Source: an uncultured Bacteroidales bacterium (GTDB taxonomy: Bacteria > Bacteroidota > Bacteroidia > Bacteroidales > Muribaculaceae). From it: a DNA stretch of 44,583 nt. Shown piece by piece: positions 8,792 to 21,532 of this stretch. Position 1 is the stretch's first letter. Each line of letters begins with the position of its first letter. The translations under genes and the position numbers were made by a program. Location of the stretch: positions 1 through 44,583 of the forward strand of contig CACZNH010000023.1 of assembly GCA_902782465.1 (NCBI GenBank), in the 5' to 3' direction. Below the pieces are notes generated by a model. The model did no database searches and was not told the DNA's origin. It saw only the letters and a list, made by a program, of their open reading frames with translations.

Positions 8792-9437
8792 TTACTCGGC
8801 AGCAGCTTCGCCTTCACCTTCGCCCTCACCTTCCTCGGTGGTAGCGGCAGCGGCGCTGTTACGGGTGGCACGAACACCGGCGATAACGAGATCCTTGGCG
8901 TTAACCAGCTCGTAGTTGTCGAATTGGCAGTCGCGAACCTTGATGGTCTTGCCAATCTCCAGGCTGTCCACGTTGAGAATGATGGTCTCGGGAATGTCCT
9001 TGTACAGACCCTTAACCTTCACCTTCTTCATGCTCAGGTAGAGCTTACCACCGGCCTTAACACCGACAGCGTGACCCTCGAGGTGCACGGGAATCTCAAC
9101 AACGACGGGCGTGGAACTGCAGGTCCTTCAGGACGGCCTTGCGGGTCTGGCCATCATAGGTCAAGTCGATTACATACACGTCGGTGCTGTAAATCAGCTT
9201 GCGCACGTCTGCGAAGTTCACTACCAGGTCAGTGGTGATGATACCCTTACCGTCACGGCCTACGGGAACCACCTTCTCACCAGCGAGCAGCTTGCCATTG
9301 TACTTGCCGTCCTTGTCGAGGTCAACGAGCTTGCCACCGTTCAGGACAACGGGAATCTTGTTCTCCTTGCGGAGCGCCTTAGCGGCCTTCTTGCCGAGGT
9401 CGGTACGAGCCTCTGCGTTCAATTGAAAAGTCTTCAT
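8792..9437 (-). pseudogene. rplY: 50S ribosomal protein L25/general stress protein Ctc, frameshifted
   Basis: Two adjacent minus-strand frames together make L25. The first (9437-9096) has the N-terminal domain to KAVLKDLQFH, then four wrong residues and a stop. The second continues with PVVVEIPVHLEGHAVGVKAGGK and an acidic, Glu/Ala-rich tail. In intact homologues about 18 residues (roughly PV-DxxLHVDF--x-D-K) lie between LKDIQFH and P-V-V-E-P; here CAC is followed directly by G-CCC-GTC near 9110, fitting loss of about 53 bp and a frameshift. L25 binds 5S rRNA and is dispensable in some bacteria, so a real lesion is possible; an assembly or read error across CCCGTC repeats is equally possible. 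A GTG at 9088 might start the C-terminal part alone. Confidence 0.8.
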
Positions 9438-9696: not shown

Positions 9697-12066
9697 TCAA
9701 TTGTCCGAAAGAATCAGGTCGATGAGGGCAGTAATATCGCTGATGTCAACCATGGAATTGCCATCAACATCGGCGCAGATGTCACAGGCTATGGCAACGT
9801 CATTCAGGATATGGTCAATGAGTGCGGTCACGTCAATGATATCTACCTTGCCGTCATGGTTCACGTCGCCGGGCTCGTAAGCGTGTCCGCCGTCAGCCAG
9901 GGTCACCATCTCGACATTGCTCCACAGGCTCTCGCTGCCGTCAATATATACGGCCTTCACCTTGTAGAGGAACGAGCCGCCTGCCTTGAGGTCGCTCACC
10001 GTATAGTATCTGTTGGGCGTGATGCCTTCGATCAGACGGTAATTGGCATCACCGCTCTCCTGGGCACGCAGCGCTGCGTTCTGGGTCGCGTCACCGGCAT
10101 AAATCCTGATGTCCTTAATCATCGGGTAGTAACCGGCCTTAAAGACAATCTGCTCAGTCTCATTGCAATCCACGACGATGGTCTTGGTCTCGTAGGAATA
10201 CATGAAAATCAGTTCCTGCGTTCCGGCGCTGGTGGTAACATACAGTTCCGAGCCTTCGCCCCAATAGCCGTAGGCCTTGGCGGTAATCTCGATGGTCATC
10301 TTGTCATATCCCTTCAGGTTCAGCACGTCGGTGGTGATGGTGCCGTTGCGGCGAATGCTCACACAACCGCCGTCCAGGTTAAACTCGCTGCCGTTAAAGG
10401 TCCAGCCCTCGGGCAGATAATTGCTGGCGTATGCAGCCTGGTTGGTGGGTGCCATCTTGGGCAGCTCGCTGAAGTCGGCCTCTTCCAGCAGGCTATAGGC
10501 GGGTTTGCTTTCCACCTCGAGGGTGTAGCTGGCCACGTTGCGGGCGGGCGTGGCATCCGTCCAGTCGGCACGGAACGACGTCAACGTCACCCTGGCAGCA
10601 TTGACGGGACTCATCACGGGGTCATAGACCTCGAGCGGAGCAGCGCCGTTCAGGGTAACGGTCACGGGGTCGGTATCATCGCTGGCAATCGTCAGGGTGG
10701 CGCTATAGTCGCCCACCGCCGTGGGGGCGGAGGTCACGACGATGTCACGGCCAGCGTTGGCCTCCTCGGCACTCAGGCGAGTAACATCGATGCTGAACAC
10801 GCCACTGGCGTCGTTGAGCGTCAACGTCACGCCGCTGGTCAGGTTGGTGCCCTTGAGGTTGAAGGTGGCGCTGGCGGTCTCGTTGATGTAGGCCTGCAGG
10901 TCGAGCACGTTGGGATAGGCCTGCAGCCTGGGATTCAGGTAACCCTCGGGCGGCTGGATGCCAATCACCATCTGCTGGCCGGTGCCGAAGGTGTAATCCT
11001 GATAGCTGAACGCGTTCAGGGCAAAGAAACCGTTGCCGCGACCGTTCCAGCCCCAGTTGATGTGGTAGGTGTCGTCGCTGGCGTCATAGCCGTCAACATT
11101 GAAGGCGTGGCCGGCACCCGTCACGTTGTCATAGGCGCAGTACACGATGGGACGGCCTGCTGTCAGCTCGTTTTGAATCAACGCTGCCCACTGGCTGTCG
11201 CTGTAGTTCTGGTAACCCAGCTCATCGCTCTTGAACAGCATCTGTGCACGCTGGTCATACTCAAAGAACTTGACGGCGCGCAGGATATCATCAAGGTAGG
11301 CGCCACTGCCGCTGATGGTATAGTCCATCTCCTCGACCTGGCCGATGTAGCGCATCAGGTGGGCGACGGCAGCACCCTGCTCGGGCGTGTAGTTGCCGCC
11401 CACATAGTTGTCAATCATGTTGCTCCAGTCGAATACCGTCGGGGGCAAGGCGGGCAACGTCACAGCATAACTCGGGATCATGTAGGAGGGCACTTCGGGC
11501 GTCTGCTGCTGCGGATATTTCCAATAGTGGAACACCATCGCCAACGATGTGGCTGGGCAACCCGTGTAGCAGGTATCGGTGCCAAAGGCAGGACACTCGT
11601 TCCAGTAGGGTCTGTTCTGGCTCCAGTTGGCGGTAATCAACGGATTCACCGACTCACCGCCAGCAGCCTCCAGAGGCGGCAGCTGCAGGTCGGGACGGCT
11701 CATCAGCAGGGCCATCTGCCTGTCATAGTAACTGAGCCAATACCGCATGTTCTCAGGCAGATTGTTCATGTCGATGGGACAGTCGCCAAATGCCAGAATT
11801 TCGCGGGCGCGGTCATCACCGGACACGATGACAAACGCATCCTGGGCATTAAACACATAGTAGGCAACTTCCTTGCCGTACCGGGTACCCTGACCCACGA
11901 GGCTCAACGCCTGGTTGCGAGCGGCAGGAGCCTTCAAGACGCCTGTGGCGGCCCGACGGCTCAGGAATGACTGTGCCCTGTTCAAGGCGGTTGTTTCACT
12001 GATGCCTGCGGCCCACACCTGAGCCACTGCCATCAGCATGATGGTAATCAAGAAGGTTTTTTTCAT
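9697..12066 (-). CDS. Secreted C10 cysteine protease (streptopain-like) with C-terminal dockerin
   Basis: 789 residues. Residues 1-19 are a Sec signal peptide. Residues 22-125 resemble the SpeB prodomain (AFVIVSGDDRAREILAFG). The C10 catalytic domain follows: Cys170 in TGCPATSLAMVFHYWKYP, His320 in AGHAFNVDGYD and the conserved INWGWNG at 336-342. Then come an Ig-like beta-sandwich (about 370-480), a fibronectin-like module (TLTSFRADWTDATPARN), a second beta-rich domain and a type I dockerin (GDVNHDGKVDIIDVTALID ... DVDGNSMVDISDITALID). CDIC between the two dockerin repeats gives a CxxC. It is 87 bp downstream of another C10 gene on the same strand. C10 enzymes are papain-fold proteases; the substrate is unknown, and no cohesin partner is in the window. 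Confidence 0.92.
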   Translation of the reverse strand: MKKTFLITIMLMAVAQVWAAGISETTALNRAQSFLSRRAATGVLKAPAARNQALSLVGQGTRYGKEVAYYVFNAQDAFVIVSGDDRAREILAFGDCPIDMNNLPENMRYWLSYYDRQMALLMSRPDLQLPPLEAAGGESVNPLITANWSQNRPYWNECPAFGTDTCYTGCPATSLAMVFHYWKYPQQQTPEVPSYMIPSYAVTLPALPPTVFDWSNMIDNYVGGNYTPEQGAAVAHLMRYIGQVEEMDYTISGSGAYLDDILRAVKFFEYDQRAQMLFKSDELGYQNYSDSQWAALIQNELTAGRPIVYCAYDNVTGAGHAFNVDGYDASDDTYHINWGWNGRGNGFFALNAFSYQDYTFGTGQQMVIGIQPPEGYLNPRLQAYPNVLDLQAYINETASATFNLKGTNLTSGVTLTLNDASGVFSIDVTRLSAEEANAGRDIVVTSAPTAVGDYSATLTIASDDTDPVTVTLNGAAPLEVYDPVMSPVNAARVTLTSFRADWTDATPARNVASYTLEVESKPAYSLLEEADFSELPKMAPTNQAAYASNYLPEGWTFNGSEFNLDGGCVSIRRNGTITTDVLNLKGYDKMTIEITAKAYGYWGEGSELYVTTSAGTQELIFMYSYETKTIVVDCNETEQIVFKAGYYPMIKDIRIYAGDATQNAALRAQESGDANYRLIEGITPNRYYTVSDLKAGGSFLYKVKAVYIDGSESLWSNVEMVTLADGGHAYEPGDVNHDGKVDIIDVTALIDHILNDVAIACDICADVDGNSMVDISDITALIDLILSDN

Positions 12067-12107
12067 TTGGTTAATATTATATCGTTTATAGTTTTATTAT
12101 CGAGGCG

Positions 12108-12150
12108 TTAGGTGGCATCCGCTAGCGGCCAGGCCGAGGCGAAGCCCTAC
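12108..12150. repeat. Mosaic intergenic repeat joining GGCATCCGC core and hairpin module
   Basis: GTTAGGTGGCATCCGC (as at 7599 and 16831) is followed by the palindrome CCGCTAGCGG in part and by GGCCAGGCCGAGGCGAAGCCCTACAT. Inverted, the last part (ATGTAGGGCTTCGCC) parallels GTGTAAGGCCTCGCC at 25132-25146. Two otherwise separate repeat types therefore meet here, between the two C10 protease genes. Confidence 0.6.
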
Positions 12151-12153
12151 ATT

Positions 12154-13806
12154 TTACTCCTCCCCACTGCCATTCAGAATCAAATCCACCAGGGCCGAGA
12201 CATCACTGATGTCAACACGTCCATCGGGTAACACGTCACAGCAAATCGGGCAAGGTTCGGCAACATTGTTCAGCAGTATATCGATGAGCCATGTCAAGTC
12301 ATTGACATCGACCGTACCGTCGTGGTTGGTGTCGCCAAGCTGATACCCATGCGGTGGCTCCAAGGCGGTGCCGCCGATGGTGACAGGCACACTTTGCGCT
12401 CCACGGCTGCCCACGGTGAGGCTGGCACCGTAGTTCCCTGGCTCCTGAGGAGCAAACATCACGGTAATCACGGTATTTCCCGCCACGTCTTGGGAGGACG
12501 TGATTTGGAAGACGCTGTCGGTGGCATTGACGGCCACAGTGATGTCAGCTATCAAATCGCTGCCGGCGACATAAATCTTCTGGGTGACGGTGTCGCCCAC
12601 GCAGCATTCCATGTCCAGCTGCTCCTTGCTGACCCACAAGATAGGTTGGTAGCGCGGCGGCATCACATTCAGGAACATCATCTGGCCGATGTCAAACCGG
12701 TAAAAGACGAGGTCGAAGGCGTTCAGGGCATAATGACCGTCACCAGTGCCGCGCCACCCGAAATTCACATGATAGGTGTCGCTGCCGGCATCATAGCCGT
12801 CAACATTGAAGGCATGGCCCTCGAGGGTGGAATCGGCCTTCATGGCATAGCCGCAATAGATGACGGGGCGACCCTTGGACAACTCGTTATAGAGCATGGC
12901 GGCCCATACCTCGTCGGGGTAGTACAGCTCGCCATCGACACTGGATTTCTCTACATAGCATGCTCCCGGGTCGTAGCCAAAGAAGTTGATGGCATCCAGG
13001 ATGTCTTGTTCGTCGGCATTGCTCCCCTGCACCTTGTAGTCCATGTGCTCAGCCTGCCCGACGTAGCGCAGCAGCGTTGCCGCAGCATCGCGCTGCCCCG
13101 TGGTGTAATTGCCTGACAGGGGATAAACGTCCAGCATCTGCGACCAGTCCAGGGCAGTGCCACCCAGGGCGTCGACAGCAAGCCCCAAGGTGTGCGTCGT
13201 GTAGGCGGGCAGGGGGTCACAGCTGGCAGGGTACTGCCAGTAGCGCATCACCTGGGCCAGGGCCACTGCCGAGCAACCGGCATAGCCCGGCTGGCCGTCA
13301 ATCGTCGGGCACAGGTAGTTGAAGGGCGAGGACTGGCCCCACTCGGTGTGCAGCATCGGGAGGATGCTTGTCGTGGGATGGTTCCAGGAGGCGCTGAACG
13401 ACTGTGCCGAAGCTTCCAGCTCAGGTTGCAGCTGCAGGGCCTCTATCTGACGTTTGTACAGCTCCAGCCAGAACTGCGCACCTGCGGGCAGTTCGTCCAT
13501 GTCCGCCAGCGGGTAGTCGCTATAGGCAAGTATCGGGCGTGCACGGTCATCACCCGCCACCACGACATATCCCATGTCGGTGCTGACGATGTAATAGGCA
13601 GCACCGCCGTCGGGAGCCTCGCTCGCCTCGGCATGCGTCCACAGCGGCTGTGGCGTCATCGACCTGATCTGCCCCTTGACACTGCCTGAACACAAGAAGT
13701 CCATCGCCGTCCGTCGGGCGGTGACCAAATCAACATTTCCGGCCGTCGTATGCACAGCCGACGTCGCAACCAGCACGGCGACAAAGAGTGACAATGCTTT
13801 TCTCAT
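12154..13806 (-). CDS. Secreted C10 cysteine protease with C-terminal dockerin (short form)
   Basis: 550 residues, the shortest of the five. A signal peptide (about 1-22) and prodomain (AYYIVSTDMGYVVVAGDDRA) precede the catalytic domain with Cys178 in YAGCSAVALAQVMRYWQYP, His331 in GHAFNVDGYD and VNFGWRG (Phe replaces the first Trp of NWGWGG). One Ig-like beta-sandwich follows (about 395-475); the fibronectin-like module of its neighbours is missing. The dockerin (GDTNHDGTVDVNDLTWLID ... DVLPDGRVDISDVSALVD) has CPICC between its repeats; the second calcium loop lacks the usual Asp/Asn spacing. It is the first gene of a two-gene unit with the protease at 9697. Confidence 0.92.
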   Translation of the reverse strand: MRKALSLFVAVLVATSAVHTTAGNVDLVTARRTAMDFLCSGSVKGQIRSMTPQPLWTHAEASEAPDGGAAYYIVSTDMGYVVVAGDDRARPILAYSDYPLADMDELPAGAQFWLELYKRQIEALQLQPELEASAQSFSASWNHPTTSILPMLHTEWGQSSPFNYLCPTIDGQPGYAGCSAVALAQVMRYWQYPASCDPLPAYTTHTLGLAVDALGGTALDWSQMLDVYPLSGNYTTGQRDAAATLLRYVGQAEHMDYKVQGSNADEQDILDAINFFGYDPGACYVEKSSVDGELYYPDEVWAAMLYNELSKGRPVIYCGYAMKADSTLEGHAFNVDGYDAGSDTYHVNFGWRGTGDGHYALNAFDLVFYRFDIGQMMFLNVMPPRYQPILWVSKEQLDMECCVGDTVTQKIYVAGSDLIADITVAVNATDSVFQITSSQDVAGNTVITVMFAPQEPGNYGASLTVGSRGAQSVPVTIGGTALEPPHGYQLGDTNHDGTVDVNDLTWLIDILLNNVAEPCPICCDVLPDGRVDISDVSALVDLILNGSGEE

Positions 13807-13826
13807 TCTGTATCTATTACCTGTAA

Positions 13827-13873
13827 GCCCGAATTCGGGCGTGCAAAATTATAAACAAAACCTCAATGCCAAA
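13827..13873 (-). promoter_or_regulatory. Predicted promoter of the C10 protease pair with a palindrome at the start site
   Basis: On the minus strand TTTG (13873-13870), an 18-bp spacer and TAATTTTG (13851-13844) match the Bacteroidetes consensus. Directly downstream the perfect 14-bp palindrome GCCCGAATTCGGGC (13840-13827) covers the expected start of transcription, so it could be an operator or a 5' mRNA hairpin. The 346-bp gap 13807-14152 holds no gene that I can see; it also has a small GGCC-TGAA-GGCC hairpin near 13974. Confidence 0.6.
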
Positions 13874-14090
13874 ACTTTTTCAGTTTTTTTATAGGTTTTT
13901 CCATTTTTCGCGTTTTCCGCGTGTGTACGTGCCGAGAGCTCTAGTTGCCAAGCCTCATTGCTGGAAAACAGGTGGCCTGAAGGCCAAAAATAAGTTGTAT
14001 GAAAAACGGAAATTTTGGGAAAAATCAACTTTTTTGTCACTTAAAGCGATAATTATTCTTTGATTAATTAACATTATTCCCAAAAAGTGT

Positions 14091-14098
14091 TATCTTTG
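14091..14098 (+). promoter_or_regulatory. Possible -7 element of the plus-strand C10 protease gene
   Basis: TATCTTTG matches TAnnTTTG and lies 54 bp before the start codon at 14153. The nearest TTTG (14059-14062) is 28 bp upstream, longer than the usual 19-20, so the promoter is uncertain. Confidence 0.4.
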
Positions 14099-14152
14099 CA
14101 AAGTTTTACAACATTATGCCTAATTATTAATATCTAAACAAACTAAACAACG

Positions 14153-16711
14153 ATGAAACGGTTCATATTCTTTTTTATCGCCGCAATGGCGATGGCGGGT
14201 AGCCTGCGGGCTGCCCCGGTCGGTGAGGCGGATGCCCGTCTGGTCGCCGACAAGTTCCTGGCCACCCAGTCAGCACGTTTCGCAACCCATTCCGGACCGT
14301 CGGCGACGCGGCTTGCCTATGCTGCCGAGCAGGGGCGGTTTTATGTCTTTGAGCGCGGCACTCACGGCGGCTTTGTCGTGGTGGCTGGCGATGACCGCCT
14401 GCCCCAAGTGCTGGCCTACGGCGAAAGCGGCGATTTCACGGCTGGCACACTGCCGCCAGCCGTCCGGTACTGGATGGATGAGATGAACAGGCAGATTGCT
14501 TACCTGCAAGCCCATAGCGACATGGCAGTGCATCAGCCCGCCAAACGCGCTCAAGCCGTAGGGCCCCTCATGACGTCCAGATGGAATCAGGGTGCCCCCT
14601 TCAACAACTATTGCCCCACCTACACCGACGGCTACGGCAACACCGCACGTGCCGTGACAGGATGTGTCGCCACAGCCACAGCCCAGGTGATGAACTACTG
14701 GCAGTGGCCGCCCGTGGGCAGGGGTAGCCACAGCTACTATTGCAATGTGGCCGACCTGACACCGACCCAACTCAGTGCCGACTTCAGCCAGTCGGTCTAT
14801 CACTGGGACCTGATGCTGGACGAATATGACGAGGGCAGCAGCCCCGAGTCCTGTGACGCGGTTGCGAGGCTGATGGCCGACATCGGCATCGCATCCGAGA
14901 TGGGCTATGGCAGCAGCAGCGGGACCTGGGAGTTTGACGCATCGACTGCCATGCAACGTTACTTCGGTTACTGCAACAAGCATTATTGGCTATACCGCGA
15001 TAATTACACAGCCGCCGAGTGGGACCAACTGCTGGCCGATGAAATCGGTCTTGGACGCCCCGTCATGTATTGCGGTGACACCAACGATTCGGGGCATGCC
15101 TTTGTGCTTGACGGTGTTGACACCAATGGCTATTTCCACGTCAACTGGGGCTGGGGTGGCTCCTGTGACGGATATTTCCTGGTTTCGGTGCTTGCGCCCT
15201 CGGGAAAATACAATTTCAAGAACAGGCAGCGTGGACTCTTCGGGATGGTTCCCGAGACGATGGCCGATGAAGTGGACGATGTGCTGTACGTCCGCGGCTA
15301 CACGATGCCCTCTTACAACACGGCACCGTTGGGGAGCAGCATCATGATTGAGACCGTCTATAATGCCGAGGGCAACATGATGGACACCACCGGTTACGAG
15401 TCATGGGGCAGTGACAAGTACTATTATTCCATGATACCCTTCAAAATGACGTTGCTGGACGGCGAGGGTGCAGAATGCTGCAGTGCGACCTACAGGTTAA
15501 TGGATTATCTGGACTACCTGCAGCCTTACTCGGCCGATATTTGCGAGTTTGACTTGCCACGGTCGCTTGCCGACGGTGAATACTACCTCAAGGTGTACTG
15601 CTCGGCCGATAATGGCGCGAGCTATGACCGACCGCTGATGGACTATAGCGGCAAGGAGATGTCACTCAGGATGGTGGTGCAGGATGACACTGCCCACATC
15701 AAGGAGCGCTTCCTGTACAACACCTATGGCATAGAGTCGTTTGTCGTGCCAGGAGGCGTGAGTGTGGACGAGACCTTTGACGTCGGCGTGAATCTCTCTT
15801 ATAAAATGTATTGGTATGAAGATCAAGCCGAAGGGCCTGCCGGCGACGTCTATCTGTCATTGCTCAAGGATGACATCGAGGTGGCCACCAGCCCGATGTA
15901 TGAGGTGACAATGCCTATCAATACGGCAAAGACCTACACGATGCAAATCACAGCACCGGCACAGGGGGGACTGTATGAACTGGTACTGAACGACGAGAGC
16001 GGCAACCACATCATGGAGATGGACGGCTATCTCAATCATGTTGGCGAAGTCACCGCTCCGATTTATATCTTGCCGATGTGCCAAAAGCTGGTCGAGGATT
16101 TTGAGACCATAACCCCTAACAGCAGCACGAGCGACAAGGGTGTACAGGGACGGTTTGCCGCATGGAACTTCATCAAGAGCGGTGTACGAGCCCCAGGCGA
16201 GGGCAAATGCAATGGCAGCAACAGCGTCATGATGAAGAAGCCCAGCGCCCTTTACACCAGCCAGCCGCTATGCCACAACTTCTTCCTGGCCCAGGCGACC
16301 ATCTTCAATCCCACTGGGGCAGCAGCCAAATACACGCTGGAGTACTCGACCGACAGCTGCACGACATGGCACAATGTATCAACCATCGACAACCTGGAGG
16401 CAGCCGAAGCGCCCGCAAAGAGCAAGTACGTTGCCAGTTGGAATCTTGAACAGATTGCCTCGATGCCAGTCCAGCTGCGCATTGTCATGACAGGCGGCGG
16501 CTCGGCAGCGACCTACCTCGATGACATCTCATTTTACTATCTCGACAGGACTGGGGATGTTAACAACGACGGTGCCGTCAATATCGCCGACGTGAATGCC
16601 GTCATCAACATGATACTCACCGATAAACAGAATCAGGTCGGCGACATGAACGGCGACGGTGCCGTCAACATTGCCGACATCAACGCCCTCATCGCTATTA
16701 TCCTGAAGTAA
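14153..16711 (+). CDS. Secreted C10 cysteine protease with C-terminal dockerin (plus strand)
   Basis: 852 residues and the only one of the five on the plus strand. Signal peptide 1-20; prodomain to about 130 (GGFVVVAGDDRLPQVLAYG); catalytic Cys171 in VTGCVATATAQVMNYWQWP, the closest of the five to SpeB; His315 in SGHAFVLDGVD; intact VNWGWGG. The middle part differs from its neighbours: no FRADW fibronectin-like module, but other beta-rich regions and a segment (about 650-800, VEDFETITPNSS ... YLDDISFYYLD) like a carbohydrate-binding or jelly-roll fold. The dockerin is compact and canonical (GDVNNDGAVNIADVNAVIN, GDMNGDGAVNIADINALI) and has no CxxC. It looks like a separate lineage from the other four. 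Confidence 0.92.
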   Translation: MKRFIFFFIAAMAMAGSLRAAPVGEADARLVADKFLATQSARFATHSGPSATRLAYAAEQGRFYVFERGTHGGFVVVAGDDRLPQVLAYGESGDFTAGTLPPAVRYWMDEMNRQIAYLQAHSDMAVHQPAKRAQAVGPLMTSRWNQGAPFNNYCPTYTDGYGNTARAVTGCVATATAQVMNYWQWPPVGRGSHSYYCNVADLTPTQLSADFSQSVYHWDLMLDEYDEGSSPESCDAVARLMADIGIASEMGYGSSSGTWEFDASTAMQRYFGYCNKHYWLYRDNYTAAEWDQLLADEIGLGRPVMYCGDTNDSGHAFVLDGVDTNGYFHVNWGWGGSCDGYFLVSVLAPSGKYNFKNRQRGLFGMVPETMADEVDDVLYVRGYTMPSYNTAPLGSSIMIETVYNAEGNMMDTTGYESWGSDKYYYSMIPFKMTLLDGEGAECCSATYRLMDYLDYLQPYSADICEFDLPRSLADGEYYLKVYCSADNGASYDRPLMDYSGKEMSLRMVVQDDTAHIKERFLYNTYGIESFVVPGGVSVDETFDVGVNLSYKMYWYEDQAEGPAGDVYLSLLKDDIEVATSPMYEVTMPINTAKTYTMQITAPAQGGLYELVLNDESGNHIMEMDGYLNHVGEVTAPIYILPMCQKLVEDFETITPNSSTSDKGVQGRFAAWNFIKSGVRAPGEGKCNGSNSVMMKKPSALYTSQPLCHNFFLAQATIFNPTGAAAKYTLEYSTDSCTTWHNVSTIDNLEAAEAPAKSKYVASWNLEQIASMPVQLRIVMTGGGSAATYLDDISFYYLDRTGDVNNDGAVNIADVNAVINMILTDKQNQVGDMNGDGAVNIADINALIAIILK

Positions 16712-16732
16712 GGCCTCAGATGTCAGGTTTTT

Positions 16733-16816
16733 ATTGGTGTCCGGTGAAATTTGACATAACCAGCTTACCTGCCTATGCCCTTGCGTCCCTAACGGGACTG
16801 TTTACCGGACACCAAT
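16733..16816. repeat. 84-bp element with 13-bp terminal inverted repeats
   Basis: Perfect inverted ends ATTGGTGTCCGGT (16733-16745) and ACCGGACACCAAT (16804-16816) enclose about 58 bp that includes the small palindrome GTCCC-TAAC-GGGAC. It has no coding capacity, like a MITE or REP-type element. A half copy lies at 9585-9627. It sits between two convergent C10 genes, 22 bp after the stop of the plus-strand one, where it may also act as a terminator hairpin. Confidence 0.8.
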
Positions 16817-16822
16817 GTTAGA

Positions 16823-16887
16823 TTTTAGGCTTTAGGTGGCATCCGCATCCCTAAAGCCTAAAGCCTAAAACCTAAAGCCTAAAGCCT
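16823..16887. repeat. Palindromic periodic repeat with GGCATCCGC core (copy 2)
   Basis: A perfect 13-bp stem TTTAGGCTTTAGG (16824-16836) and CCTAAAGCCTAAA (16850-16862) flanks the loop TGGCATCCGCATC. The right arm goes on as further CCTAAAG/CCTAAAA units to 16887. The core and arms match copy 1 at 7589-7676, while the flanking genes differ. Confidence 0.85.
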
Positions 16888-16924
16888 AAAAAAGGATGGC
16901 ATGCCCGCTTGAAGCATGCCATCC
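16888..16924 (-). terminator. Intrinsic terminator of the second C10 protease gene pair
   Basis: GGATGGCATGC (16894-16904) and GCATGCCATCC (16914-16924) form a perfect 11-bp stem with a 9-nt loop. On the minus strand it is followed by six T (16893-16888). It lies 46 bp past the stop of the protease gene at 16971. Confidence 0.88.
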
Positions 16925-16970
16925 CTCTTGTATTGGGAGAATGCGGCGATTACCGCATCAAGGTCTGTTT

Positions 16971-19361
16971 TTAACGACCATTCAAAAGCTTGTCGATAAG
17001 GGCAGTCACGTCACCGATGTTGACGATTCCGCTATTATCCAAGTCCGCACACTGCTCGCAGAATCTGGGCGTATAGCCGTTGAGCAGATAGTCGAGAAGG
17101 GCAGTAATATCGCCAATGTTGACGCTACCGTCATGGTCCACGTCACCCTTGGTGTACTCGTGAGCGGGAGTGCCGTTGTCGAACAGGGTAACCGTCTCGG
17201 TGTTACTCCAAGCGCTCTCGGTGCCGTCGGTGTAGATGGCCTTAACCTTGTACAGGAAGGTACCCTCGGCGAGCAGGTTCTCAACGGTGTAGGACTTGCC
17301 GTTGATACCGGTAATCAGACGATAGGTCTCGTTGCCATCCTCCATAGCACGCAGAGTGGGAGCGGTAACTTCGCCAGCATAAATCTTGATGGCTTGGATA
17401 GTAGGATTCCAAGCGGTAGCAAAGAACTCAACCTGGTCACTCTCGGCGCAATTCAGAACGATGGTGTAATCAACATAATTGTTGGCCAAATCCAGAGTCT
17501 TCTCATCAACACTGGTCTTTACGGTTACAGTCGATGCGGTCCAGCCATAATAATTCTTGGCCCTCATCACTACGGTAACCTTATCGCATCCAGCAAGGTC
17601 AAGGACATCGGTCTTGATGTAGCTGTCGGTAGTAATTGCAATACCGCCTTCATCAAAGAAGATGGAGTAGTCACCTACGGTCCAGCCCTCGGGCAGAGCG
17701 TTATAGGCGCTACCGGTTGCAGTGCTCCAGTCAACATCGGCCAGCAGACCACCTGCACCGGGTTTCTCCTTCACCTCGAGGGTGTAGCTGGCAACGTTCT
17801 CGGCAGGAGTCTCGTCGGTCCAGTCGGCACGGAACGAGGTCAAGGTAATCTTCTCCTCATTGGCGGGCAGCATCACGGGAGTGTAAACCTCGAGAGGAGC
17901 AGCGGTAGCGGTACCGTTGAGGGTAACGGTTACATCCTGGCCACCGGGGGTGCTCAGGGTTACGGTAGCAGTGTTGGTGCCAACAACCTGGGGTGCATAG
18001 GTAACAGTAACGGTCTTGCTAGCGGCATCGGCAACAGCGATGGTTTCAACATCGGTGGTGAAGACGCCATTCTCATCGTTAACGGTTACGGTGATGTCAT
18101 CGGTCAGGTCAAGACCGGCAACAGTAAAGGTTGCAGTGGTGGTCTCACCAGCATAGCACTCCATGTTGAGGGTCGTGGGCGATACGACCATGCGGGGAGC
18201 AGCGGGACCCGTGGGAGGCTGCAGATTAGCGAAAATCAAGGGATAGAAGTCATACACGGTCATGCCATTGTCCAGCGTGAAGGCGTTCATGGCATAGTAA
18301 GTGTTCTTATCGGCACTCATACCGAAGTTCACGTGATACAGGTCGGTCTCGGCATCGTAACCATCGACATTGAAGGCGTGGCCACCAATACCGGTGGAGT
18401 CAGATGACATGTCAAATGCGCAATAAATCAGAGGACGGCCAGCAACCAGCTCAGACTGAACCAGCTCAGCCCACTCATCTTCGGTATAGTTGACGGTACC
18501 GTCATCATAGTCCCACTTCATCTGGATGCTGTAACCCGGGTCGAAGCCGAAGGTCCTGATGGCCTGGTCGATCTCGTCATACTCAGCACCGCTCTGGTCG
18601 ATGGCATAGTCCATGTTCATAGCCTGACCAACATAGCGCATCAGCCAGCTGATAGCATCGATGATCTGGTCTGAATACTGGTCGGTGTTGGTGCGATAAG
18701 TGTCCAGCATGTGTTCCCAGTCAAAGGTGTACTCGGGCAGGGCATCAATCTGATATTGGTGAGTCTCAGTGACGTAACCGGGCAGGGCAGGCGAGGTAGC
18801 AGGATAATTCCAGTAGTTCATGACCTGAGCCAGAGCTACAGCTGCGCAACCCACCTTGCAGTAGGGGTCACTGCCATAACCCTTTCTCGGGGTCTTCATG
18901 TTGTAAGGCTTACCCTGGGCCCATGCGGTAGTAAACAGGGGCGCAACCGAGATACCGCCACGGGTAGCAGCGCGCTTCTGCACCTTAGCATCGGGATGAG
19001 CCTGGAGGTATTCCAGCTGTTTCTGGTACTTGTTCAGAATCAGCTTCATAGCACCGGGCAGGTCGTTCATGTCATCCAGGCTGTTAGGACCGTAGGCGAG
19101 GATTTCGCGTGCACGGTCATCACCCGATACGACAACATAACCACGGTCGGTGTTCACCACGTAGTAAGCGGGCTGGGCATTGATGGACTTAGCCTCATGC
19201 GTCCACTTGATAGTGGGAGGAGTGGCCATGTAGCGGCCATTGGCAGTCTGGCTCATCAGGAAGCGCTGTGCGCTCTGCTGAGCGGTGGCCTTGTCAACAT
19301 TGGCTGCGGTAACTTGCATGGCAGCAAGTGCGAGTGCAGCAAGGAATAAAAATTTCTTCAT
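16971..19361 (-). CDS. Secreted C10 cysteine protease with C-terminal dockerin, altered NWGW motif
   Basis: 796 residues from the ATG at 19361 (a GTG two codons upstream is less likely, as MKKFLFLAALALAAMQ is a good signal peptide). Prodomain with GYVVVSGDDRAREILAYG; catalytic Cys172 in VGCAAVALAQVMNYWNYP; His328 in GGHAFNVDGYD. The motif NWGWGG is replaced by NFGMSADKN, so a conserved tryptophan near the active site is lost and activity may be changed. An Ig-like domain, the FRADWTDETPAEN fibronectin-like module, a beta-rich domain and a dockerin follow, with CEQC between the dockerin repeats. It is 20 bp downstream of the next protease gene; their dockerin DNA is almost identical, which points to recent duplication or gene conversion. 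Confidence 0.92.
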   Translation of the reverse strand: MKKFLFLAALALAAMQVTAANVDKATAQQSAQRFLMSQTANGRYMATPPTIKWTHEAKSINAQPAYYVVNTDRGYVVVSGDDRAREILAYGPNSLDDMNDLPGAMKLILNKYQKQLEYLQAHPDAKVQKRAATRGGISVAPLFTTAWAQGKPYNMKTPRKGYGSDPYCKVGCAAVALAQVMNYWNYPATSPALPGYVTETHQYQIDALPEYTFDWEHMLDTYRTNTDQYSDQIIDAISWLMRYVGQAMNMDYAIDQSGAEYDEIDQAIRTFGFDPGYSIQMKWDYDDGTVNYTEDEWAELVQSELVAGRPLIYCAFDMSSDSTGIGGHAFNVDGYDAETDLYHVNFGMSADKNTYYAMNAFTLDNGMTVYDFYPLIFANLQPPTGPAAPRMVVSPTTLNMECYAGETTTATFTVAGLDLTDDITVTVNDENGVFTTDVETIAVADAASKTVTVTYAPQVVGTNTATVTLSTPGGQDVTVTLNGTATAAPLEVYTPVMLPANEEKITLTSFRADWTDETPAENVASYTLEVKEKPGAGGLLADVDWSTATGSAYNALPEGWTVGDYSIFFDEGGIAITTDSYIKTDVLDLAGCDKVTVVMRAKNYYGWTASTVTVKTSVDEKTLDLANNYVDYTIVLNCAESDQVEFFATAWNPTIQAIKIYAGEVTAPTLRAMEDGNETYRLITGINGKSYTVENLLAEGTFLYKVKAIYTDGTESAWSNTETVTLFDNGTPAHEYTKGDVDHDGSVNIGDITALLDYLLNGYTPRFCEQCADLDNSGIVNIGDVTALIDKLLNGR

Positions 19362-19381
19362 AAACACAGTTTATTTAATGA

Positions 19382-21532
19382 TTAATAAAAAAGATTGGTT
19401 GAATTCAATAATTTGTCGATAAGGGCCGTCACGTCACCGATGTTGACGATTCCGCTACCATCCACGTCGGCACACTGCTCGCAGAATCTGGGCGTGTAGC
19501 CGTTGAGCAGATAGTCGAGAAGGGCAGTAATATCGCCAATGTTGACGCTGCCGTCATGGTCCACGTCACCTCTTGCAAACTCATGGGGTGCCGGGCCGTT
19601 ATCAAACAGCGTCACGGTCTCCATATTGCTCCACTCGCTCTGGGTACCGTTCACATAGTAGGCTTTCACGCGATAGGTGAACGTGCCGCCCTCGGTCAGG
19701 TCCCTCACGGTGTAGAACTTGTTGGTGATATCGGTGATGACGCGATAGGTGGCATCACCATCCTCGACAGGAACAGTCAGCATCATCTTGGCTGCGTCAA
19801 CCGTCGAGCTGTAGATGTCAACCTGGGTAACGACAATGCGCTTGGTGTTGGAACCGTCGCCACCGGTAATGGTCACCTTCTGGTTCTCATCGGCCTCACA
19901 CTTCAGCACGATGGAATAAGTGGTCTCGGCATTCACAACGACACTCTCCATGCTGTTGCCGCACGAGATGGTGACAGGCACATCGGTATCGGCGCTCTGG
20001 TAGGGCTTCAAAGTGATGACAACAGTCATCTTGCCGCCGCTCTGCGTCATGTCCACAGCCGGCGTGGTGAGCACGCCCACACTGCCGCCGCCACCCAGGC
20101 GCAAACCGCCGCGGGCCTCATAGACATTGCTGCCGGTCCATCCCTTGTTGGTGCAATAATTGTCAATCTTGGTCGTGGGTCGACTACCGTTATCTGACGC
20201 ATAGGGGAACGACTCGCTGAAGACTTTCTCATAGACGCCAGGCTCGGTGCCGTCGTCGGTGTTCACCTCGAGGGTGTAGCTGGTCACGTTCTCGGCAGGC
20301 GTCTCGTCGGTCCACTCGGCACGGAACGAGGTCAGCGTGATGTAGTCCTCGTTGGCGGGCAGCATCACGGGAGCGTAGGCCTCGATGGGTGCCGGCGGCT
20401 CAATGCCCATCACCATCAGCTCTCCCAGGCTGTAGTTATAACCTTGATTGGCAAAGGCACGCAGGGCAAAATAGCCATTACCGGTGCCACTCCAGCCCCA
20501 GTTGATGGAATACAGCCCACTAGCGGCATCGTAACCGTCAACGTTGAAGGCGTGACCATAGAATGAGTTATAGGCGTTGCTGTAGCTGTAAGCGCAATAG
20601 ACCACGGGACGGCCTGCTTCAAGCTCATCCTGGAGCATCACGCTCCACTCGGCATCGTCGATAATCATTGTTTCGCCATGGTTATCAAAGTCCAGCACGG
20701 CCTTGTATTCCACATGGGCATCAACGTAACCAAACATCTGGCAAGCCCTCAGGATATCATCCTCCCAAGCCGTACTGCCGTCGTTGCAGTAGTCCATGTG
20801 CTCAGCTTGACCGATGTAACGCATCAGCTGGGCGATGGCATTGTGCTGAGTGGTGTTGTAATAGCCCACCTTGTACTCTGGCAGGATATTGGCCCAGTCA
20901 AACACTACCGAAGGCAAGGGAGGCATGTCAAATTTCCTGGTGATGGTAGTATAGCCCGGGATGACGGGAGTGGCCTGTGTGGGATACTGCCATTTGTAGA
21001 ACACCTGAGCCAGGGAGGTGGTGGCGCAACCTGTCAGGCAGCGGCGGTCACCGTCCATCGGGCACTGGCTGTAGTAGGGATAGCCCTGGTCCCACTTTGC
21101 CTCCAGCATCGGGGCAACCGTGTTACCGGACTTGATGGACGGTTTCTCCACCTTCAGACCGGGATGGGCCTGCAGGTACTCCATCTGTTGCTTGTAGTTA
21201 TCCAGCCAGAACTTCATGTTCTCGGGCATCGTGTTCATGTCGAGCAGCGACTCGCCATAGGCGAGAACTTCCTGGGCACGGTCGTCACCGGCAACGATGA
21301 CAAAGCCGCGGTCGGTATTCACAATGTAGTAGGCGGCAAGGTCAACACGGCTGGAATTCTTTTCCTCGTGAATCCATTTCACCTGTGGTGCCGAGGCCAT
21401 CAACCGGCCGTTGGCGGTCTTACTCGTCAGGAACTGCTTGGCTGTCTGCTGGGCATGGTTCATGTCCACGTTGGCTGCCATGAGGTTGAGCGAAGCAGCC
21501 ACAAGAGTAGCAAGTAATAGGAACTTTTTCAT
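19382..21532 (-). CDS. Secreted C10 cysteine protease with C-terminal dockerin
   Basis: 716 residues. Signal peptide MKKFLLLATLVAASLNLMAA; prodomain with GFVIVAGDDRAQEVLAYG; catalytic Cys169 in LTGCATTSLAQVFYKWQYP; His327 in YGHAFNVDGYD; intact INWGWSG. Unlike its neighbours it goes directly from the catalytic domain to the FRAEWTDETPAEN fibronectin-like module, with no Ig-like domain; then comes a beta-rich domain and a dockerin (GDVDHDGSVNIGDITALLD, CEQCADVDGSG, VNIGDVTALID). The five residues after the dockerin helix (TNLFY) differ from those of its neighbour. It is the promoter-proximal gene of the second pair; no good promoter match was found in 21533-21700. Confidence 0.92.
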   Translation of the reverse strand: MKKFLLLATLVAASLNLMAANVDMNHAQQTAKQFLTSKTANGRLMASAPQVKWIHEEKNSSRVDLAAYYIVNTDRGFVIVAGDDRAQEVLAYGESLLDMNTMPENMKFWLDNYKQQMEYLQAHPGLKVEKPSIKSGNTVAPMLEAKWDQGYPYYSQCPMDGDRRCLTGCATTSLAQVFYKWQYPTQATPVIPGYTTITRKFDMPPLPSVVFDWANILPEYKVGYYNTTQHNAIAQLMRYIGQAEHMDYCNDGSTAWEDDILRACQMFGYVDAHVEYKAVLDFDNHGETMIIDDAEWSVMLQDELEAGRPVVYCAYSYSNAYNSFYGHAFNVDGYDAASGLYSINWGWSGTGNGYFALRAFANQGYNYSLGELMVMGIEPPAPIEAYAPVMLPANEDYITLTSFRAEWTDETPAENVTSYTLEVNTDDGTEPGVYEKVFSESFPYASDNGSRPTTKIDNYCTNKGWTGSNVYEARGGLRLGGGGSVGVLTTPAVDMTQSGGKMTVVITLKPYQSADTDVPVTISCGNSMESVVVNAETTYSIVLKCEADENQKVTITGGDGSNTKRIVVTQVDIYSSTVDAAKMMLTVPVEDGDATYRVITDITNKFYTVRDLTEGGTFTYRVKAYYVNGTQSEWSNMETVTLFDNGPAPHEFARGDVDHDGSVNIGDITALLDYLLNGYTPRFCEQCADVDGSGIVNIGDVTALIDKLLNSTNLFY

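What the first reader, a model, noticed from the sequence alone, without database searches (positions are those of the whole stretch)
9697..21532. Array of five secreted C10 proteases, all dockerin-tailed, with no cohesin in sight
Five streptopain-like proteases lie within 12 kb in two minus-strand operons and one plus-strand gene. All five end in a type I dockerin, a module that normally docks to a cohesin. No scaffoldin, cohesin or sortase is in the window. A shared docking partner elsewhere could assemble a surface protease complex, a proteolytic counterpart of the cellulosome. Alternatively the dockerin may be a surface-retention or stability tag. No separate small inhibitor gene, as seen with some Bacteroides C10 enzymes, lies next to any of them.
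Basis: partly seen in the sequence, partly recalled or inferred. Interest (0 to 1): 0.7.

Follow-up and report, generated by a model that had tools for sequence, protein, structure and literature searches.

The report
Dockerin-tagged proteases in a Bacteroidales genome
Five neighbouring secreted proteases in an uncultured Bacteroidales bacterium each end in a docking tag, and the same genome carries well over a hundred more such tags plus hidden matching receptors, which suggests a cellulosome-like surface protein complex that now needs a binding test.

Summary
Five active-looking C10 (streptopain-type) zymogens lie at 9697-21532, each with a secretion signal, I69 prodomain, catalytic domain and C-terminal type I dockerin. 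The window has no cohesin, but its genome (3.13 Mb, 94.8% complete) holds about 150 or more dockerins, 24 C10 proteases, and ten divergent cohesin domains that Pfam scores below cut-off. The dockerin load is genus-specific: 6 of 6 genomes, against 0-9 hits in 92 of 93 other family genomes sampled. Sister species encode scaffoldin-like proteins (for example six cohesins plus a dockerin) and cohesin proteins with type IX secretion (T9SS) tails. One genome of another family has proteins of five and at least seven cohesins with T9SS tails. Of 80 named C10 relatives, 17 end in a dockerin, 52 in a T9SS-like tail, 11 in neither, none in both. Best reading: the proteases are cargo of a cohesin-dockerin surface complex anchored through T9SS. 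Binding is not shown, and how dockerin-tailed proteins cross the outer membrane is unknown. Cargo is mixed (LRR proteins, peptidases, glycosidases), so 'proteolytic' is too narrow. A Cloacimonadota system is a published predicted precedent.

The parts
9697..12066 (-). C10 protease 1 (789 aa): signal peptide, I69 prodomain, C10 domain, beta-rich middle region (weak fn3 match below cut-off), dockerin (class TT)
11713..12012 (-). I69 prodomain of protease 1
   Evidence: aa 19-118, 63.2 bits
11023..11625 (-). C10 catalytic domain of protease 1
9712..9873 (-). C-terminal type I dockerin of protease 1
   Evidence: AlphaFold2 model pLDDT 89, best PDB match a cohesin-bound type I dockerin, E 6e-3
12154..13806 (-). 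C10 protease 2 (550 aa), shorter, ends in dockerin (class TS)
12187..12339 (-). dockerin of protease 2 (23.1 bits, just over the 22.9 cut-off)
14153..16711 (+). C10 protease 3 (852 aa), separate C10 branch, ends in dockerin (class NN)
16553..16702 (+). dockerin of protease 3
16971..19367 (-). C10 protease 4 (798 aa), ends in dockerin (class TT)
16983..17150 (-). dockerin of protease 4
19382..21532 (-). C10 protease 5 (716 aa), ends in dockerin (class TT)
19406..19570 (-). dockerin of protease 5

Best explanation
The five C10 proteases are secreted zymogens whose C-terminal dockerin plugs them into cohesins encoded elsewhere in the genome. SHOWN by sequence: the dockerins fit a type I fold with Ca loops; the same genome has ten cohesin domains in seven proteins; sister species have multi-cohesin scaffoldin-like proteins with a C-terminal dockerin and cohesin proteins with T9SS sorting tails; the T9SS translocon gene sprA is present; the dockerin sits where many relatives carry a T9SS tail. 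INFERRED: cohesin proteins carrying a T9SS tail are exported and fixed on the outer surface, and hold dockerin-tailed cargo (C10, S8 and M6 peptidases, LRR proteins, glycosidases) directly or through scaffoldins; prodomains are removed outside. UNKNOWN: how a dockerin-tailed protein without its own T9SS signal crosses the outer membrane.
For: In 708 kb sampled, 116 dockerin ORFs, 90 with the dockerin within 12 aa of the C-terminus; 105 of 109 with a full 5' end have a signal-peptide-like start by a rule of my own. 24 C10 proteases: dockerin profile hits in 22 of 24, 21 of these at or near the C-terminus. Cohesins: a profile from four own domains gives 10 domains at E<1e-9 in seven proteins; widened to 51 domains of the genus its best PDB hits are scaffoldin cohesins (5n5p E 2e-6) and the NagJ cohesin. 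Architectures: six cohesins plus dockerin (G206), three cohesins plus dockerin (G164), cohesin-dockerin-cohesin-dockerin (own contig C37, G241), dockerin-cohesin-T9SS tail (G186, G206, G225, G241); G003, another family, five and at least seven cohesins each with a T9SS tail, the five-cohesin one over curated cut-offs for both PF00963 and PF18962. Co-occurrence: 9 of 10 dockerin-rich genomes with PF00963 hits against 36 of 139 (Fisher p 9e-5). Two matched dockerin classes: of 77 dockerins with Thr or Asn in both repeats 1 is mixed, against 38 on shuffling. C10 tails: dockerin 17 of 78, TIGR04183 T9SS tail 43 of 78, none scored as both; at least 8 changes on the tree, 3 forced by well-supported branches.
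Against: No binding data, and cohesins could not be folded or docked with these tools. Ten cohesins face about 150 dockerins. Several cohesins sit beside a dockerin in the same chain, so pairing could be intramolecular. Cohesins often occur with few dockerins: G211 has 6 cohesin and 0 dockerin hits, G199 11 and 4, G160 7 and 2, and 36 order genomes that are not dockerin-rich have PF00963 hits. G149 (85% complete) has 31 dockerins and no cohesin hit; G075 has 11 and none by PF00963. Of six other dockerin-rich genomes looked into (G003, G048, G052, G094, G107, G116; one or two stretches each), only G003 showed multi-cohesin proteins with a T9SS tail, and the lineage profile found no cohesin in the stretches of G048, G094, G107 and G116. 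The T9SS tails of the window genome's own cohesin proteins are weak: a profile built without them ranks two above all 90 controls (E 4e-4, 5e-4), a third about level with the best control (0.008 against 0.010), and misses a fourth. No uninterrupted multi-cohesin array was found in the window's own genome. PF00963 scores own cohesins below its cut-off. Some C10 dockerins look decayed. Repeats within one dockerin are more alike in general (57% against 46%), so the matched classes may reflect descent.
Confidence: 0.6

Rival explanations
1. The dockerin is a terminal sorting or retention tag that works without cohesins, in effect a lineage-specific replacement for the T9SS C-terminal domain, read by the T9SS or an unknown outer-membrane factor.
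For: Terminal placement in 90 of 116 dockerin ORFs; it occupies the position of the T9SS tail in many C10 relatives, with several swaps; tags far outnumber cohesins; G149 has 31 dockerins and no cohesin hit; 10 T9SS-like tails (profile partly trained on nine of the genome's own tails) against 90 terminal dockerins in the sampled stretches.
Against: Cohesins co-occur with dockerin-rich genomes and sit in scaffoldin-like architectures. T9SS tails are also few in other genera of the family that have no dockerins, so the two are not simply complementary. Two matched dockerin classes look more like partner specificity than one common tag.
Confidence: 0.2
2. The dockerin is a calcium-binding stability module on periplasmic or released enzymes, with no specific partner; cohesin-like domains pair with dockerins inside single chains only.
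For: Many cohesins in the genome are directly next to a dockerin in the same protein; some dockerins have lost a loop yet stay on the gene; cohesins also occur in genomes with few dockerins.
Against: Tandem multi-cohesin proteins cannot be satisfied by their single dockerin, and G003 has proteins of five and at least seven cohesins in which no dockerin was detected. Order-wide co-occurrence.
Confidence: 0.12
3. A plain cellulosome or amylosome for plant polysaccharides in which the proteases are minor accessory cargo.
For: Many named relatives of the C10 genes are ruminant or horse gut MAGs by their titles; GH13, GHL10 and GH53 are among the cargo; PMC9863278 reports dockerin and GH13 in Muribaculaceae C941.
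Against: LRR_5 proteins (21 of 72) and peptidases outnumber recognised glycosidases in the sample (only the 25 commonest families shown); 24 C10 proteases.
Confidence: 0.08

Closest known systems
Predicted cellulosome-like complex of Candidatus Stygibacter (Cloacimonadota), PMC8542988 (passages read)
   Same: Scaffoldin-like protein with tandem cohesins and a C-terminal surface-attachment domain for which the paper cites a T9SS review; cargo with C-terminal dockerins including S8 and C25 peptidases
   Different: Other phylum; one 3,755-aa scaffoldin with CBMs; five dockerin proteins named in the passages seen, against about 150 or more dockerins and 24 C10 proteases here; here the cohesins are divergent and the scaffoldin-like proteins small
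Ruminococcal and clostridial cellulosomes and the R. bromii amylosome (PMC6118326, passages read; otherwise recalled)
   Same: Type I dockerins on cargo; primary scaffoldin with a C-terminal dockerin; single-cohesin anchor proteins; many dockerins with few cohesins as the paper says of R. albus and R. bromii
   Different: Bacillota with sortase or S-layer anchoring (recalled); here an outer membrane and T9SS tails; cargo rich in peptidases and LRR proteins
Limousia mucinolysome (PMC12997984, passages read)
   Same: Gut cohesin-dockerin complex with dockerin-bearing peptidases; scaffoldins whose C-terminal dockerins are predicted to reach an anchoring scaffoldin
   Different: Bacillota, sortase-anchored, CAZyme-centred
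T9SS-tailed C10 proteases of the family S24-7/Muribaculaceae (PMC4936053, passages read) and interpain A (3bb7)
   Same: Same zymogen fold; the S24-7 paper reports T9SS and a streptopain homologue among proteins with the T9SS tail
   Different: Here the T9SS tail position is taken by a dockerin
Dockerins in rumen Bacteroidetes: Muribaculaceae C941 and Prevotella sp. UBA3846 (PMC9863278), camel-rumen bins (PMC6071333), consortium Prevotella (PMC7480376); passages read
   Same: Dockerin-rich gut Bacteroidetes; PMC9863278 suggests cellulosome potential for Prevotella UBA3846, and PMC6071333 states that Bacteroidetes use cellulosomes; C941 is probably the same or a close genus (inference)
   Different: PMC9863278 reports no cohesin in C941 and proposes a non-amylosomal mode; a lineage-specific profile finds cohesins in the present genus. 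The passages seen give no scaffoldin architecture, T9SS anchor or C10 link for Bacteroidetes

Membership tests
MEROPS C10 / Pfam Peptidase_C10 (streptopain) | C10 domain with catalytic Cys and His, I69-type prodomain | tested here: met
   (which columns are catalytic is recalled)
Type I dockerin | Two F-hand Ca loops and helices, Pfam PF00404 over cut-off, dockerin fold | tested here: met
   (five of five over cut-off, one marginal); 98 of 119 sampled own dockerin hits have two loops by a simple pattern
Cohesin (partner module) | Homology to known cohesins | tested here: met
   Own domains are below the PF00963 cut-off, but a 51-domain profile of the genus finds PDB cohesins first, E 2e-6
Cellulosome-like (cohesin-dockerin scaffolded) complex | Scaffoldin with several tandem cohesins in the same organism | tested here: inconclusive
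   Present in sister species G206 (6) and G164 (3) and in G003; in the window's own genome at most two to three cohesin domains per protein, mostly interleaved with dockerins
Cellulosome-like complex | Specific calcium-dependent dockerin-cohesin binding in trans | not testable with these tools
   needs binding assay or co-fold of non-window proteins
Cellulosome-like complex | Surface anchor on a cohesin protein | tested here: inconclusive
   T9SS tails on cohesin proteins of sister species and G003; weak in own genome, two of four above all controls
T9SS cargo | T9SS C-terminal domain on the C10 proteases themselves | tested here: not met
   No T9SS tail profile hit on the five; the C-terminus is the dockerin
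T9SS-positive organism | SprA translocon | tested here: met
   2660 bits at C6:3234-10481; other T9SS genes not tested
Cellulosome proper | Cellulase-dominated cargo | tested here: not met
   (the 72 non-C10 of 90 terminal-dockerin proteins sampled; only the 25 commonest families shown)

The most novel reading that the evidence does not exclude
In this genus the dockerin has taken over the role of the T9SS sorting domain. Many proteins dropped their own T9SS tail for a dockerin, dock in the periplasm to a few T9SS-tailed cohesin carriers, and ride through the translocon as folded hitchhikers, so export and surface assembly are one step, with two dockerin classes sorting cargo between carriers.
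Probability: 0.2. Interest if true: 0.9.

Novelty: new variant of a known kind. Interest (0 to 1): 0.65.

Why it matters
[quoted passage not shown] other papers (PMC9863278; PMC6071333) already suggest or state cellulosome use in Bacteroidetes. The present data make the question testable: gene architectures, divergent cohesins that the standard Pfam model scores below cut-off, T9SS tails as a likely anchor, and a tail swap in a well-studied protease family. It also suggests that the 'dockerin without cohesin' reading for rumen Muribaculaceae C941 may reflect profile sensitivity. The interest score was lowered slightly (0.68 to 0.65) on rechecking because of those earlier suggestions.

Tried and rejected
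'No cohesin' was tested first with PF00963: own genome 0 hits over cut-off, three below; a lineage profile then found ten domains. One candidate (fifth sequence) did not align as a cohesin and was dropped before the profile was built; three of 54 domains were left out of the 51-domain alignment. Surface-lipoprotein export was set aside: 2 of 109 dockerin ORFs have a lipobox-like motif, both weak. Strict complementarity of dockerins and T9SS tails across the family was rejected: tails range 0-51 in other genera (51 being near a scoring cap) and several dockerin-free genera have few. A within-genome tail swap (C10 at C30:28159 against its sister at C5:76772) was first labelled as T9SS tail by hand; a profile built without own tails did not confirm it (E 0.17), so the tree count was repeated without it (9 to 8 changes, forced 4 to 3). 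The tree is a quick one without bootstrap, 40 of 100 inner branches under 80 support. The T9SS labels of the 52 named C10 tails came from a profile trained on 41 of those tails plus nine own tails; the independent counts are TIGR04183 43 of 78 and PF18962 36 of 78. Two of the 23 own rows labelled dockerin rest on my reading: one internal, one decayed and unscored.
Full report
OBSERVATION. The window encodes five C10 proteases at 9697-12066(-), 12154-13806(-), 14153-16711(+), 16971-19367(-) and 19382-21532(-). All five pass Pfam cut-offs for Peptidase_C10, Inhibitor_I69 and Dockerin_1; the second dockerin is marginal (23.1 against 22.9 bits). The model of the first enzyme (mean pLDDT 72, 11 sequences) matches the zymogen prointerpain A (3bb7) best. 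The dockerin alone models at pLDDT 89 and its best PDB matches are type I dockerins solved with their cohesin, top hit 2ccl_B, E 6e-3, TM 0.71 and 0.79; no match reached E 0.001. The presumed catalytic Cys and His are invariant across the genome's 24 C10 domains.

THE GENOME. The window is one contig (C23) of a 3.13 Mb, 45-contig assembly, 94.8% complete. It has 24 C10 proteases and about 150 or more dockerins: 154 matches at E<=1, with 150 of 272 candidates scored and a few rows being halves of one dockerin. In 41 stretches plus the window, 708 kb in all and chosen mostly for dockerin density or C10 genes, 116 distinct dockerin ORFs were found: 90 C-terminal, 11 N-terminal, 15 internal. Of the 24 C10 proteases, 22 have a dockerin profile hit, 21 at or near the C-terminus; one has it internally followed by a formylglycine-enzyme-like domain (by eye), one has a decayed tail by eye, and one (C30:28159) has none. 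Of 109 dockerin ORFs with a full 5' end, 105 have a signal-peptide-like start and 2 a weak lipobox, by a simple rule.

GENUS SPECIFICITY. Among 99 family genomes, the 6 of the window's genus each show 58-59 scored dockerin hits (a cap) from 125-268 candidates; G149 of another genus has 31; the other 92 have 0-9. SprA is in 98 of 99, and T9SS tails (PF18962, E<=0.01) in 97 of 99, 5-15 per genome in the window's genus and 0-51 elsewhere. Named relatives of the C10 genes are largely Muribaculaceae or other Bacteroidales MAGs, many from ruminants or horses by their titles.

COHESINS. PF00963 gives only sub-threshold hits in the genome. A profile from four of its domains finds ten at E<1e-9, on contigs C1, C9, C15, C29 and C37, in seven proteins. 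Searched against PDB sequences, a ten-domain profile hits cohesins first (2jh2 NagJ 0.002, 5n5p scaffoldin 0.0022), and a 51-domain profile more strongly (5n5p 2e-6, 5m2o 6e-4, 5aoz 9e-4). All 6 genomes of the genus have 6-14 such domains (the window's own ten by construction of the profile); 23 of 93 other family genomes have 1-12, several of them with few or no dockerins (G211 6 and 0, G199 11 and 4, G188 12 and 9); G149 has none. Pfam at E<=0.01 does not see the six cohesins of the G206 protein, which could explain reports of dockerin without cohesin.

ARCHITECTURE. In sister species: G206, signal peptide, six cohesins, C-terminal dockerin (919 aa), beside a 576-aa protein with dockerin, cohesin and T9SS tail (TIGR04183 16.9 bits, below its cut-off of 23); G164, three cohesins plus dockerin; G186 and G225, small cohesin-dockerin proteins; G241, cohesin-dockerin-cohesin-dockerin three times. 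The window's genome has one cohesin-dockerin-cohesin-dockerin protein (C37), two cohesin-dockerin-cohesin-tail proteins (C15), two dockerin-cohesin-tail proteins (C1, C15), one lone 166-aa cohesin protein (C29) and one N-terminal cohesin on a 2536-aa frame (C9). Outside the genus (13 stretches of 9 genomes): G188 (same family), three cohesins plus dockerin beside a 219-aa cohesin with T9SS tail; G003 (another family), adjacent proteins with at least seven and five cohesins, each with a T9SS tail. The G003 five-cohesin protein passes both curated Pfam cut-offs, Cohesin and Por_Secre_tail. Against this, the lineage profile found no cohesin in the stretches of G048, G094, G107 and G116, although PF00963 had led to them. 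T9SS tails on the window genome's own cohesin proteins are weaker: a profile built without them puts two above all 90 controls, one about level with the best control, one undetected, and the curated TIGR04183 model does not report them.

CO-OCCURRENCE. Of 149 order-level genomes, 10 have ten or more dockerin hits. Nine of these have a PF00963 hit at E<=0.001, against 36 of the other 139 (Fisher p 9e-5). The window's genome is one of the nine, with a hit below the curated cut-off; without it the count is 8 of 9. G075 is the exception. Relatedness and genome size are not corrected for.

TAIL SWAP. Dockerin_1 matches 17, TIGR04183 43 and PF18962 36 of the 78 C-termini at E<=0.1. By my own labels the 80 split into 17 dockerin, 52 T9SS-like and 11 neither; none was scored as both. 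On a quick tree of 104 C10 domains the label changes at least 8 times (3 forced by well-supported branches; shuffled mean 30). The S24-7 family paper independently reports T9SS and a streptopain homologue among T9SS-tail proteins (PMC4936053, passages).

TWO DOCKERIN CLASSES. In 105 sampled dockerins with two parsed loops, the residue two after the loop-ending Asp is Thr in both repeats of 39 and Asn in both of 37; 1 has one of each, and 28 have other letters. Mixed Thr/Asn is 1 of 77 against a shuffled mean of 38. Asp at position 18 is invariant in the Thr class. This fits two partner specificities with dual-face dockerins, but two old dockerin lineages, or homogenised repeats (57% identity within against 46% between dockerins), would look the same. 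The window holds TT, TS, NN, TT, TT.

CARGO. Of the 90 proteins with a terminal dockerin, 18 are C10; of the other 72, Pfam finds LRR_5 in 21, S8 in 4, M6 in 4, GHL10 in 3, GH13 in 3, CotH in 2, NAGPA in 2, GH53 in 1 (only the 25 commonest families are shown). So the assembly would be a mixed surface coat with a protease share, not a purely proteolytic one.

MECHANISM. Most likely: cohesin proteins with T9SS tails are exported and fixed to the surface, and hold dockerin cargo directly or through scaffoldins. Unshown: any binding, any location, and the route of dockerin-tailed proteins across the outer membrane. Hitchhiking with a cohesin carrier would explain it and is the boldest reading not excluded.

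KNOWN WORK. PMC8542988 predicts the same kind of system in Cloacimonadota, with a surface-attachment domain on the scaffoldin and dockerin-tailed peptidases. PMC12997984 says no cellulosome is described outside Firmicutes and flags Bacteroidetes for study; against that, PMC6071333 states that Bacteroidetes species use cellulosomes, and PMC9863278 suggests cellulosome potential in Prevotella UBA3846 while reporting dockerins without cohesin in Muribaculaceae C941. All were seen as passages only. Ten full-text searches returned no paper that I recognised, from the listings shown (not all matches were listed) and the passages opened in 12 papers, as describing cohesin-dockerin assembly with T9SS anchoring in Bacteroidales or a dockerin on C10 proteases; the library is open-licence PubMed Central only.

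Noticed in passing
window 8792-9437 (-): The bL25/Ctc-like ribosomal protein gene reads in two frames (ORFs 9096-9437 and 8792-9088), a frameshift or assembly error (name from the sequence by eye, no family search).
   Followed up: no
window 10488-10571 (+): ARAGORN calls a tRNA-Ser(cga) antisense inside the first C10 gene; probably spurious.
   Followed up: no
L073 5688-7733 (+): A C10 protease with an internal dockerin followed by a C-terminal domain that looks like a formylglycine-generating enzyme (by eye).
   Followed up: no
L236 2898-8217 and L251 3202-6485: Two further C10 gene clusters (three and two genes) whose dockerins look decayed.
   Followed up: partly
L078 4110-4625, 5632-5919, 11388-11885: Two small secreted proteins with a dockerin near the N-terminus and, about 5.5 kb away, a lone 166-aa cohesin protein.
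   Followed up: partly
L237 713-5266 (-): A C10 protease without a dockerin hit; its sister by the tree (L249) has one. Its tail resembles a T9SS tail by eye only.
   Followed up: yes
G149 (loci L265, L266): A genome of another genus of the family with 31 dockerin hits and no cohesin hit; a counter-example or a missed cohesin.
   Followed up: partly
G094 contigs C2 and C23 (loci L260, L261): Very large open frames (8081 and 6522 aa) with PF00963 hits in another dockerin-rich Bacteroidales family; the lineage profile found no cohesin in the fetched stretches.
   Followed up: partly
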